Positions 2,727 through 19,869 of a DNA stretch of 64,000 nt are shown in pieces (position 1 is the first letter of the stretch; every line of letters begins with the position of its first letter). Source of the stretch: an archaeon SCG-AAA382B04. Its GTDB lineage: Archaea; Halobacteriota; Methanonatronarchaeia; Methanonatronarchaeales; Methanonatronarchaeaceae. The stretch covers positions 1-64,000 of the forward strand of contig PZKD01000100.1 in assembly GCA_003034855.1 (NCBI GenBank), in the 5' to 3' direction. Made by a program: the position numbers and the translations under genes. The notes beneath the pieces were generated by a model that searched no databases, was not told where the DNA came from, and saw only the letters and a list, made by a program, of their open reading frames with translations.

Positions 2727-3608
2727 TTATTTTTCTATAACAAAAACAAAAATAGAGCCTATTAAGAAAAAGATTATAGTTGAGGAAATTGTTACTATGT
2801 TCCATTTGAAATTTATTTTTTGAAATATTTGTTCTGCATAAATTAATTTTGAACCTGGAAGTCTTAGGGCACCTATCATTAAACCGGTCAAGAAAGCTAG
2901 AGTTTTTCTTTTGTATTTTTTTAAAATAAAAGAAAGAGCATCCGTAAAAGCAAATAGAGATAATATTGCACCAAAAACAAACAAAGATGCCTCTAAGAAC
3001 CTCGTAGAAAGATTATGTAAGGTGTTTAGCATGTATTCATATTGACCAATTATTAAAAGAATAAATGACCCTGAAATACCTGGTAAAACCATGGCTAAAA
3101 CCGCTAGAGCACCAGAAAAGAAGATAATTATGGGAGTATGTAATAGACCTAACTTTTCTAATCCAGTAACTAAAAAAGCAAAAACGATGCCAATTATCAA
3201 AAACAAGATGGGATAAAATCCTTTTTGACCATCTATTCTCTCATATATCTTTATTGCCGAAACTAAGATTAAACCAAAAAAGAAAGAATATGTATACGTT
3301 GGAAAAAAATTTAAAGCATATATTATTAACTTAGATGCTAAAAAAATCGCTATAATTATTCCTAAACCTAAATTAATCAAAAAAACTAATTCGATTTTTG
3401 TTAACAATTTTTTAAATCTATCAAAATCTCTCTTAACAAGACTAGATAAAATTGCGATAGGTTCTATTGAGTTTATAGAAAAAATGAGGTCTTCATAGAT
3501 CCCTGTGATCAATGCCATTGTGCCTCCTGAAACCCCGGGAACTATATCTGCTAAACCCATAAGAACGCCCTTAGAAAAAAGTAATACCTTCGGATAGAGT
3601 TTACTCAT
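2727..3608 (-). CDS. DUF368 polyprenyl-phosphate transporter family protein
   Basis: A 293-residue polytopic membrane protein with the DUF368 signature near the N-terminus (KGVLMGLADIVPGVSGGTMA) and its internal repeat (MVLPGISGSFILLIIGQYEYML). About eight hydrophobic segments are visible and the length is normal. DUF368 proteins are implicated in recycling undecaprenyl phosphate across the membrane; in archaea the substrate would be dolichyl phosphate, which is inference. The ATG lies only 7 bases from the end of the IsrB element. The usual promoter spacing is therefore missing, and a plausible original promoter and GGTGAT ribosome-binding site lie on the far side of the element (about 5037-5070). 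Expression may now depend on read-through from the element. Confidence 0.88.
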   Translation of the reverse strand: MSKLYPKVLLFSKGVLMGLADIVPGVSGGTMALITGIYEDLIFSINSIEPIAILSSLVKRDFDRFKKLLTKIELVFLINLGLGIIIAIFLASKLIIYALNFFPTYTYSFFFGLILVSAIKIYERIDGQKGFYPILFLIIGIVFAFLVTGLEKLGLLHTPIIIFFSGALAVLAMVLPGISGSFILLIIGQYEYMLNTLHNLSTRFLEASLFVFGAILSLFAFTDALSFILKKYKRKTLAFLTGLMIGALRLPGSKLIYAEQIFQKINFKWNIVTISSTIIFFLIGSIFVFVIEK

Positions 3609-3614
3609 CTTATA

Positions 3615-3660
3615 TGGCGAAGAAGACTCCCTGCTTTAGCGGGGGGAGGAATTCGCCTTA
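3615..3660 (-). repeat. Right-end hairpin of the IsrB element
   Basis: Minus-strand sequence GGCGAATTCCTCCCC, GCTAAAGC, GGGAGTCTTCTTCGCC can fold into a hairpin with outer GGCGAA/TTCGCC pairing. This is the familiar terminal palindrome of IS605/IscB-type elements. It overlaps the isrB stop codon (3658-3660) by a few bases. Confidence 0.7.
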
Positions 3661-4683
3661 GTTCACCTCCTTGGATTTTACCATTAATCCTGTGTTTCTG
3701 TTGATTAAGTGTGTTTTGGATTTGACGAACTGGCCCAAGCGATTCCAGTCAAAATCCGAGACCGAGATACGGTTCTTGGTATAGCCTGAGACCCAGCCCC
3801 TAACCGTCTTATCTCCTTGCCTAGCTTCTACATAATCTCCTTTCCTATACTTAGATTGGGTAGTTGTACCACCATATCTTCTCCTAACTCCTCCTTTAGA
3901 TGGTTGCTCTAGGTGAAGTTTTCTTCTTGAGTATTTGGGCCTTGTAACTATATTGAAAGAAAAATCTGTTAGTTCTATATTCTCTAGAGCTAGGGAGCAT
4001 AGGGCTATGGCGTCGTGGGCGTGAGACTTGGGTGTTTTCTCCGCCTTATCACTGGTTTTTTCCAAACCCAATTCTTCTCTTTCCCTGGAGGTCTGCCATC
4101 CCTGGAATAACCTTACTGGTGCAATCTCTTTTAGCTCAGAAACTAACCAGTTTTTCCCTACTTCCACTTGACTAAAGTAACTTCCTTCCATGTGTTGGTA
4201 ATGGTTATAGGATACATCTTCTACCACGATTTGGGATATGGGAAAAACCTTGGACAGTTCTCTAACAACCCTTATCTCCAATTCCTTTCTTGCTTTGATA
4301 GAAGGAGCTAGCCAGTGCCCGCTTCGGTTATCAAATCTCTTTTCTCTCCTCCTGGTTTTTCTGTATCGCCTATTTCTTCTTCTTTCTCTGCGCTTATCCA
4401 TTCTCTCGCTAACTTGTTGAGGAAGCTCTAGGTTCAAGCCAATGAGTATAGCTTCCTTGGAAACTACTGCCACTCCAGAGAACTTGCTCCCAGGGTCCAG
4501 GCCTATTGCAATTTCTTGCTTTTCTCTGCCCATAGGCTCTTCCACTAACTGAACAGCAAACACACATAGCTCTGTCCTCACTGGCTCTGCCTTACCTCCT
4601 TTTAACCATCTTCTAGCCCTCTGTGGCTTGGTAGGCATCAGTGGTTCTCCATCAGGAGCTAATACAGGAACCCTCTCACACAT
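3658..4683 (-). CDS. isrB: IsrB-like RNA-guided nuclease without HNH domain
   Basis: The 341-residue protein has the IscB/IsrB order: an N-terminal PLMP domain (VLAPDGEPLMP at residues 7-17, then RARRWLKGGKA), RuvC-I with GLDPGS (D63), an Arg-rich bridge helix at about 96-118, RuvC-II with IVVEDVS (E155), and RuvC-III with SHAHDAIAL (D224). A Lys/Arg-rich C-terminal domain follows. Only about 65 residues separate RuvC-II and RuvC-III. They contain no HNH or zinc motif, but do contain the ELGLEKTSDKAEKT segment that precedes RuvC-III in this family. That makes it IsrB, a nickase in characterised members, rather than IscB. All three RuvC acidic residues are present, so it may be active. ATG at 4683 follows directly from the omega-RNA region, as in known loci. 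Confidence 0.85.
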   Translation of the reverse strand: MCERVPVLAPDGEPLMPTKPQRARRWLKGGKAEPVRTELCVFAVQLVEEPMGREKQEIAIGLDPGSKFSGVAVVSKEAILIGLNLELPQQVSERMDKRRERRRNRRYRKTRRREKRFDNRSGHWLAPSIKARKELEIRVVRELSKVFPISQIVVEDVSYNHYQHMEGSYFSQVEVGKNWLVSELKEIAPVRLFQGWQTSREREELGLEKTSDKAEKTPKSHAHDAIALCSLALENIELTDFSFNIVTRPKYSRRKLHLEQPSKGGVRRRYGGTTTQSKYRKGDYVEARQGDKTVRGWVSGYTKNRISVSDFDWNRLGQFVKSKTHLINRNTGLMVKSKEVN

Positions 4684-5036
4684 TTCTTATCTCCTTCTCT
4701 TTCTTCTTCTTCCTTCTTTCGTTTTTGTTTTATGGGGGTTTTGTTTGGGAGATAATCCCTTCAGCACTCCAGAGCTGGTGTTTGCCTTGTTTAGGCGTCC
4801 CCTCGCCAATGCCAATGCTAATGTAGTGGAGAGTGTGTCTCTCCCATAGTGGGGGCCCTCCAAGCCAGGGTTGGAGGCTTACAGAGCCTGGGACTGGGGA
4901 GGCACCCACAGGGTGTTTGTCTCTCCACGGCGTAGTCCTTAACTATCCTTTTTGGACGGGCTCAGGCTAGTCAACTCTTAGTTGGAGCCCTGGCTCTCCA
5001 AGCTCCTTCCTTCAGGGAGAAGAAGTTGACAAAATC
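4684..5036 (-). ncRNA. omega-RNA (guide RNA scaffold) of the IsrB element
   Basis: About 350 bases upstream of isrB contain no credible gene but many paired segments, and are much richer in GC than the surroundings. On the minus strand the blocks GGGTGCCTCCC (4907-4897), CCCAGGCTCTG (about 4892-4882) and ATTGGCGAGGGGA (about 4810-4798) recur in the same order at 19403, 19420 and 19506, upstream of another IscB-type gene. IscB/IsrB guide RNAs are encoded here, with the guide taken from the sequence just outside the left end. The predicted guide is therefore the minus-strand flank from roughly 5052 down to 5037. The exact RNA ends are not visible from sequence. Confidence 0.72.
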
Positions 5037-5119
5037 ACCAGATAAATCTCTAATCTTGTTTATATATTACTTAACTTCATAATTAATTTACCTTCAAAAA
5101 AATAATTAAGCAACTAAAG
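5037..5119. promoter_or_regulatory. Divergent promoter region, cut on the left by the IsrB element
   Basis: TTTATATATTAC around 5059-5070 provides TATA-like sequence on both strands. On the minus strand a TATATAAA box is followed after about 20 bases by TCTGGTGATTTT, where GGTGAT looks like a ribosome-binding site, and then by the element edge. This arrangement fits the original leader of the DUF368 gene, now 1.4 kb away. On the plus strand the same AT-rich stretch would serve the winged-helix gene at 5120. Confidence 0.45.
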
Positions 5120-18465: not shown

Positions 18466-19270
18466 ATGAAAATTGATAACTATTTATCAAAAACAATAGC
18501 AGTAGACAAAGATGAAAACTTATCATTCGCTATGGAAAAGATGGAAAAGAACAATATACAGGACATCCCTGTAACCAATGAAGGAAAATACATAGGAAAA
18601 CTGTCCTACCTTAATCTAGCTGAAGAACTGGGTTCAATGAGAAAAGGAAATAAGCCAGCATCGCAGCTACATGTTGCCACTGCTTACAGCCAAAATGGTA
18701 GTCTACTCAGCTCTAAAACATCCTTAAAAGCGGCTGCTTCCGAATTAGTTACCAGAAATAGCTCTATTTTATTAGTTAAAGATAAAAAAAAAAAAAATTG
18801 GATCCTTAAAGGCAATTGATTTGTTGGATAAAATAGGCCTAAAGGGACGTGCTAAAGAAATTGTCAATCGAAATTTCACAACCATACCCTCCACTGAAAG
18901 AGTGGTAAACGCTAGAAGAAGAATAATCAATAGGGGAGAAGATGTTTTGGTGATAAGAGAAAATCAAGACATTTTAGGTATCTTAACCCCAAAAGAAATA
19001 GCTGAAGGAATGAATTCATTCAGGAGATTAGTTCCCGATGAAAAACAGGACTCAAGAATACGAAACCTCTTAGTAGAGGACATAATGGAAAATAATTATC
19101 TAAAAATGGATGAGGGCAGTTCAATAACAGATGTTTCTACCAATCTCTACAAAGAAAAAGAGAGACTAACACTAATTTCAGATGATTTAGGTGAAATAAA
19201 AGGATTTATTGATCAACTTGACTTGTTAAAAAAATGGTGTGGTGATGAAAGGTCAACTACCTCTCCCTAA
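18466..19270 (+). pseudogene. Four-CBS-domain gene split by a frameshift in an A14 run
   Basis: The first part (MKIDNYLSKTIAVDK, from ATG 18466) stops at 18819; the second part carries IDLLDKIGLKGRAKEIVNRNF onward to 19270. Between them lies a run of 14 A (18784-18797). With 13 A the frame reads DKKKKIGSLKAIDLL straight into the second part, giving one four-module CBS protein like its neighbours. The last codons (TTSP) lie inside the second omega-RNA element, whose left end is at about 19252, so the natural C-terminus is also lost. The frameshift may be a sequencing error, a slippage-switchable tract or real decay. Confidence 0.75.
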
Positions 19271-19569
19271 CTCACTTCGTTTGTGAGGAAGGGGCTTGAA
19301 AAAGTCTCGTAGAGGGGTGGGAGATTAGCCATATGCGATGTCACTCTAGGGAAGTGGCAAATGAACTACGTTCGGGACTAAAGTGTTTGACATACACCTT
19401 GCGGGTGCCTCCCAAGCCACCAGGCTCTGGAAACCATAGTGGACGACCTCACAGCGTCCTCTTTCCCAGGCTGTGCAACATCACTATGGTCTACGCCTGT
19501 CCCAACATTGGCGATGGGAACCTGACCCACATCTACGCGGAGATGACTCTTACGGGTCGTAAAAAATAG
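19252..19569 (+). ncRNA. Second omega-RNA locus
   Basis: This region begins GTCAACTACCTCTCCC with a hairpin (ACTCACTTCGTTTGTGAG, then GGAAGGGGCTTG), like the left end of the IsrB element (GTCAACTTCTTCTCCC then GGAAGGAGCTTG). It also carries GGGTGCCTCCC (19403-19413), CCAGGCTCTG (19420-19429), CACTATGG and ATTGGCGATGGGA (19506-19518) in the same order as that element. It is GC-rich and ends about 20 bases before a PLMP-domain start codon, the expected position for an IscB-type guide RNA. A 78-codon open frame over it (19333-19569) has no protein character. The guide would come from the flank just upstream of 19252. Confidence 0.7.
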
Positions 19570-19590
19570 TTAAAATAGTTTGTGAGAAAT

Positions 19591-19869
19591 ATGAAGAAAG
19601 TATTCGTACAAGATAAGAATGGAAAGCCATTGGACCCTACGAATCCAGCTAGAGCTAGAAAGCTCCTGGACAATGACAGGGCTAGGGTCGTAGAGAGACA
19701 GCCATTCACCATCAAAATCCTTTCTCAAAATTTAGAAAGAGTAGGAATAGATTCAGAAGCAACCAAAATTAACGAACTAAAAGATGGAAATTATAGAATT
19801 TTTATTGAAAAGCTCAAAAAATCAACCAATGACAAAACAAATTCGCTATTAAACGGAGGATTATGGTGA
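19591..19869 (+). pseudogene. IscB/IsrB remnant: PLMP domain fused to another gene's tail
   Basis: From ATG 19591 the first 45 or so residues ([20 protein letters not shown], then [23 protein letters not shown]) are a textbook PLMP/RRXRR domain. The expected RuvC domains are absent. From about residue 46 ([16 protein letters not shown]) the sequence turns Lys-rich and AT-rich like the host genes and ends 7 bases inside the DHH gene start. I read this as a nuclease gene truncated by deletion and joined in frame to the 3' end of a host gene that was coupled to the DHH gene. The host part is not identified. Whether the chimera is translated is unknown. Confidence 0.68.

What the first reader, a model, noticed from the sequence alone, without database searches (positions are those of the whole stretch)
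3615..5036. Apparently intact archaeal IsrB OMEGA element without HNH domain
PLMP, RuvC-I/II/III and the bridge helix are all present with D63, E155 and D224, while the HNH position holds only about 65 unrelated residues. A GC-rich structured upstream region and a terminal hairpin complete the unit. IsrB nickases are less often described than IscB or TnpB and are mostly known from bacteria and phages, so a complete archaeal copy is notable.
Basis: partly seen in the sequence, partly recalled or inferred. Interest (0 to 1): 0.75.

Follow-up and report, generated by a model that had tools for sequence, protein, structure and literature searches.

The report
Archaeal IsrB guided-nickase mobile element
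This is a real, intact copy of a small mobile element carrying an RNA-guided DNA-nicking enzyme (IsrB) and its guide RNA in an archaeal genome; it is a good example of a known kind of system that turns out to be widespread in archaea.

Summary
ORF 4683-3658 (-) is a full-length IsrB: phmmer to DtIsrB (8dmb) E=3e-79 over residues 3-336; AlphaFold model (pLDDT 81) with 8dmb as top fold (Z 30.6). RuvC residues D63, E155, H221 and D224 are invariant or nearly so among 25 relatives, and no HNH fold lies between them. An omega-RNA (Rfam HEARO, 71.6 bits, E=6e-14) lies at 5030-4791; the biochemically proven DtIsrB locus scores only 56 bits. The right end is a hairpin (3657-3616) followed 7 nt later by ATGA. 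NTGA follows this hairpin in 15 of 18 IsrB elements against 18% background, matching the measured DtIsrB target-adjacent motif. The genome holds about four IsrB copies under purifying selection, true IscBs with HNH, and omega-RNA mini-elements. The element has no transposase; three Y1 transposases are encoded elsewhere. The novelty claim is weaker than stated: I found IsrB in Alkanophagales, Archaeoglobales, Methanoperedens, Borrarchaeota, Sifarchaeum, Bathyarchaeota and Thermoplasmata, and a 2025 paper reports IsrB as abundant in archaeal Borgs. It is a new member of a known kind. Guided nicking, guide use and benefit to the element remain inferred.

The parts
3658..4683 (-). IsrB protein, 341 aa (PLMP, RuvC-I D63, bridge helix, RuvC-II E155, RuvC-III H221/D224, C-terminal TAM-interacting domain)
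4791..5030 (-). omega-RNA scaffold (Rfam RF02033 HEARO, positions 1-211 of 211); the transcript probably runs on to the Shine-Dalgarno just before 4683 (inference)
5031..5050 (-). presumed guide-encoding flank (outside the element, immediately 5' of the scaffold)
   Evidence: copies lose similarity upstream of GTCAAC at 5030; guide position and length inferred from IscB/IsrB biology
3616..3657 (-). right-end hairpin GGCGAA...TTCGCC
3605..3608 (-). ATGA, predicted target-adjacent motif (fits NTGA); overlaps the start codon of the neighbouring PF04018 gene (2727-3608, -)
   Evidence: TAM of DtIsrB from PMC9581776

Best explanation
A non-autonomous IS200/IS605-type (OMEGA) element encoding IsrB and its omega-RNA. 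The scaffold starts at the left end, so the host sequence just outside (about 5050-5031) becomes the guide. The IsrB-RNA complex should recognise the vacated insertion site (guide match followed by NTGA, here ATGA) and nick its non-target strand through the single RuvC centre, which would favour recopying of the element after excision by a Y1 transposase. Shown here: protein family and fold, omega-RNA homology with covariation, element ends, NTGA at the right junction across relatives, multicopy state, purifying selection. Inferred: transcription, guide use, nicking, benefit to element retention, and mobilisation in trans by one of the Y1 transposases elsewhere in the genome.
For: phmmer to DtIsrB E=3e-79 over 3-336; fold match to 8dmb, Foldseek E=2.9e-37 and Z 30.6 over 322 residues, IscBs at Z about 19-23; conserved catalytic residues; HEARO E=5.8e-14, sister copies 86.9 and 86.8 bits against gathering 83, HEARO at the same place in 11 of 12 relatives including DtIsrB itself; 31 of 68 predicted RNA pairs with a kept change on both sides; NTGA 4-11 nt after the right-end hairpin in 15 of 18 elements against 18% background; about four copies; dN/dS about 0.13-0.27 for unsaturated pairs; Y1 transposases elsewhere.
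Against: No expression or activity data. The window copy's HEARO score (71.6) is below Rfam's gathering score (83). No empty site in a close relative was available, so the exact ends (a few bp) are inferred from copies, and one sister copy (C40) has ATTA rather than NTGA at the junction. A TATA-like stretch at about 5070-5061 (read by eye) could start transcription at about 5038 and so give a guide shorter than 20 nt.
Confidence: 0.9

Rival explanations
1. A recent internal-deletion derivative of one of the host's own IscB elements that lost its HNH domain, rather than a true IsrB.
For: The genome also has IscB with HNH (C89, C78, C111) and IscB-type omega-RNAs.
Against: The protein is about 40% identical to DtIsrB along its whole length, including the region between RuvC-II and III, but matches the host IscB only over the N-terminal half (42%, residues 6-166). 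In the tree the IsrBs are separated from the IscBs by a 100/100 branch.
Confidence: 0.02
2. A decayed element: the ORF is still open but the omega-RNA or protein no longer works.
For: Other omega-RNA loci in the same genome are degraded (window 19252-19728).
Against: Full length, all catalytic residues kept, dN/dS well below 1 against sister copies, covarying RNA pairs.
Confidence: 0.05
3. The protein has been taken over by the host as a regulator or defence factor rather than serving the element.
For: The copy sits directly before the start codon of a PF04018 gene, where it could affect that gene.
Against: Multicopy, defined element ends and copies at unrelated sites indicate ordinary mobility; catalytic residues kept.
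Confidence: 0.03

Closest known systems
DtIsrB of Desulfovirgula thermocuniculi (PDB 8dmb; PMC9581776)
   Same: Domain order, size, RuvC residues, HNH linker, upstream HEARO omega-RNA, right-end hairpin followed by NTGA
   Different: About 40% protein identity; bacterial host; another branch of the IsrB tree
IsrB of Candidatus Alkanophagales (L077, QMVQ01000019.1)
   Same: 68-69% identical over residues 4-340, same layout, right junction ATGA; sister to the window copies (100/97)
   Different: Different archaeal lineage; uncharacterised itself
IscB (OgeuIscB and others)
   Same: PLMP, RuvC, bridge helix, HEARO-type omega-RNA
   Different: IscB has an HNH domain and cuts both strands; HNH is absent here
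IsrB of Borg elements (PMC12660748)
   Same: IsrB carried in several copies by archaeal genetic elements
   Different: Sequences not compared here

Membership tests
IsrB (OMEGA nickase) | about 350 aa protein with N-terminal PLMP domain and split RuvC | tested here: met
   341 aa, RRXRR/PLMP, full-length DtIsrB match
IsrB (OMEGA nickase) | catalytic RuvC residues D, E, H/D | tested here: met
   D63, E155, D224 invariant and H221 nearly invariant in 25 sequences
IsrB (OMEGA nickase) | no HNH domain between RuvC-II and RuvC-III | tested here: met
   no HNH in the Pfam scan; the model built on 25 sequences shows no HNH fold; aligns to DtIsrB without an insert
IsrB (OMEGA nickase) | structured omega-RNA directly upstream of the ORF, guide at its 5' end | tested here: met
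   HEARO at 5030-4791 just before the ORF; the guide itself is inferred
IsrB (OMEGA nickase) | NTGA-type target-adjacent motif | tested here: met
   ATGA at the right junction; NTGA in 15 of 18 elements; sequence evidence only, other IsrBs have other TAMs
IsrB (OMEGA nickase) | RNA-guided nicking of the non-target strand | not testable with these tools
   needs biochemistry
IscB | HNH nuclease domain inserted in RuvC | tested here: not met
Autonomous IS200/IS605 transposon | own Y1 transposase inside the element | tested here: not met
   Y1 matches only at C41 (two) and C89, none on C1

The most novel reading that the evidence does not exclude
The IsrB and IscB proteins of this archaeon are served by protein-less mini-elements (omega-RNA with end hairpins, some keeping only the PLMP domain), which act as a dispersed guide-RNA bank working in trans.
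Probability: 0.1. Interest if true: 0.5.

Novelty: new member of a known kind. Interest (0 to 1): 0.27.

Why it matters
It adds a complete, multicopy archaeal IsrB that is only about 40% identical to the one IsrB with a solved structure, with predicted guide, ends and TAM that can be tested directly. The distribution shows that IsrB is a regular resident of several archaeal phyla, useful for tracing how HNH-less and HNH-bearing relatives of Cas9 are connected. It does not open a new kind of system.

Tried and rejected
Single-sequence AlphaFold gave a useless model (pLDDT 38) and was replaced by one with 25 relatives. Single-sequence scans of named genomes and viral contigs found nothing; alignment-based scans worked. 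A search for a second copy of the guide plus TAM in the genome gave only partial matches, 16 against 6 for the reversed control in an AT-rich genome, and no exact one. The bacterial-type promoter and terminator scan is uninformative for an archaeon. Host identification: same-phylum genomes G117 and G227 appear to be the Alkanophagales and Archaeoglobales records found by name, so the host is an archaeon of that phylum; it has no methyl-coenzyme M reductase match, although one same-family genome has one; the exact lineage was not settled. Altae-Tran 2021 and Kapitonov 2016 are not in the library, so their archaeal content was not checked.

Full report
Observation. The ORF at 4683-3658 on the minus strand encodes 341 aa without interruption. 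Pfam gives RRXRR (E=1.2e-50, residues 5-161) and no HNH. NCBIfam gives a sub-threshold IscB match only (154 against 175 bits). Against the sequences of solved structures the top hit is DtIsrB, PDB 8dmb, E=3e-79 over residues 3-336; IscBs follow at E=5e-18 and weaker, mostly over the N-terminal half. PHROG 32617, of unknown function, matches at full length (E=1.4e-82), so relatives occur in phage or virus genomes too.

Protein anatomy. In an alignment of 25 IsrBs, D63, E155 and D224 are invariant and H221 nearly so. AlphaFold2 with that alignment gives pLDDT 80.9 and pTM 0.79; between E155 and H221 it shows helix 172-185, strand 190-194 and helix 195-205, with no HNH fold. Foldseek ranks 8dmb first (E=2.9e-37), and the second aligner gives Z 30.6 over 322 residues for 8dmb, about 19-23 for IscBs and 16 or less for Cas9s. 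In the DtIsrB paper the corresponding place is taken by a short HNH linker that is needed for nicking (PMC9581776).

Guide RNA. Rfam finds HEARO, the family that covers IscB/IsrB omega-RNAs, over its whole length at 5030-4791 (71.6 bits, E=5.8e-14; gathering score 83). Two sister copies in the same genome score 86.9 and 86.8. HEARO lies at the same place in 11 of 12 relatives scanned, and the biochemically proven DtIsrB locus scores 56.2 bits, so the window copy's sub-gathering score is no sign of weakness. Across six omega-RNAs, 31 of 68 predicted pairs show a kept change on both sides.

Ends and TAM. The genome carries about four IsrB copies: the intact one here, left halves on C45 (two) and C56, and right parts on C52, C54 and C40, all broken at contig ends. 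Left ends share sequence from GTCAAC (5030) inwards; right ends share a hairpin followed by AATAAG-ATGA or ATATAAG-ATGA in three of four, with ATTA in C40. Over IsrB relatives, NTGA follows the right-end hairpin in 15 of the 18 elements that a script could anchor, against 18% for random placements; two of the three misses (L084, L090) look mis-anchored on inspection. DtIsrB's own locus has TTGA there, and its measured TAM is NTGA/TTGA. Here ATGA (3608-3605) overlaps the start codon of a PF04018 undecaprenyl-phosphate-translocase-like gene. Joining the flanks gives CTGGTGATTTT-ATGAGT, a plausible ribosome-binding site and start codon; this fits clean insertion without target duplication, but is inference.

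Selection and mobility. dN/dS between copies is about 0.13-0.27 where synonymous sites are not saturated. The element has no transposase; Y1 transposases lie on C41 (two) and C89, two of them beside TnpB-like ORFs (read by eye), so mobilisation in trans is inferred.

Distribution. An alignment-based scan of named genomes found 32 loci: Alkanophagales (69% identity, the closest), Archaeoglobales, Methanoperedens, Borrarchaeota (several copies), Sifarchaeum, Bathyarchaeota, Thermoplasmata and an unnamed archaeon, beside Bacillota and a few other bacteria. The tree separates IsrB from IscB at 100/100 and places the window copies with the Alkanophagales copy (100/97); archaeal IsrBs do not form one group. 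In a sample of 392 genomes of the host's phylum, full-length or nearly full-length IsrB occurs in six genomes beside the host. [quoted passage not shown]

Mechanism. By homology with DtIsrB, the RNP should bind a target matching the guide next to NTGA and nick the non-target strand (PMC9581776). Because the guide comes from the flank of the insertion, the natural target would be the site left empty after excision, or the allelic empty copy; nicking there would promote repair from a copy that still carries the element. This last step is inference: what a nickase, as opposed to the double-strand-cutting IscB and TnpB, does for its element is not settled by anything tested here.

Verdict. A correctly recognised, intact archaeal IsrB element, ordinary for its kind; interest is modest.

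Noticed in passing
window 19252-19728 (+): A second omega-RNA (HEARO, 37 bits) followed by an ORF (19582-19869) that has only the PLMP part (residues 7-54) fused to what Pfam sees weakly as the C-terminal tail of a Pab1020-type ligase: apparently a truncated IscB relic between a CBS gene and a DHH gene.
   Followed up: partly
L115 (G000:C1:73900-75300), matches at 74400-74870 (-): Mini-element with omega-RNA, a PLMP-only ORF of 81 aa and a right-end hairpin followed by AAGATGA directly at the start of the next ORF; no RuvC.
   Followed up: partly
L116 (C1:144677-144956) and L117 (C54:6193-6434): Omega-RNA-only mini-elements with end hairpins and no protein; right junctions read AGATAAA and CTATAAA, like the NTAAA TAM of some IscBs. 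Possible trans-acting guide RNAs.
   Followed up: partly
L001 (C89), L005 and L006 (C78, C111): The same genome has IscB with HNH (open frame of 414 aa at C89) and damaged IscB copies beside IsrB. Right ends of IscB and IsrB elements here share an AAGAT-like terminal stretch.
   Followed up: no
L096 (Methanoperedens DYGR01000001.1), 778-1991: An IsrB element whose omega-RNA (2266-2475) lies about 275 bp from a CRISPR array of at least 17 repeats.
   Followed up: no
L015 (C45 end): One sister IsrB copy appears inserted in a PIN-domain-like (VapC-type) ORF, judging by eye from the frame upstream of its left end.
   Followed up: no
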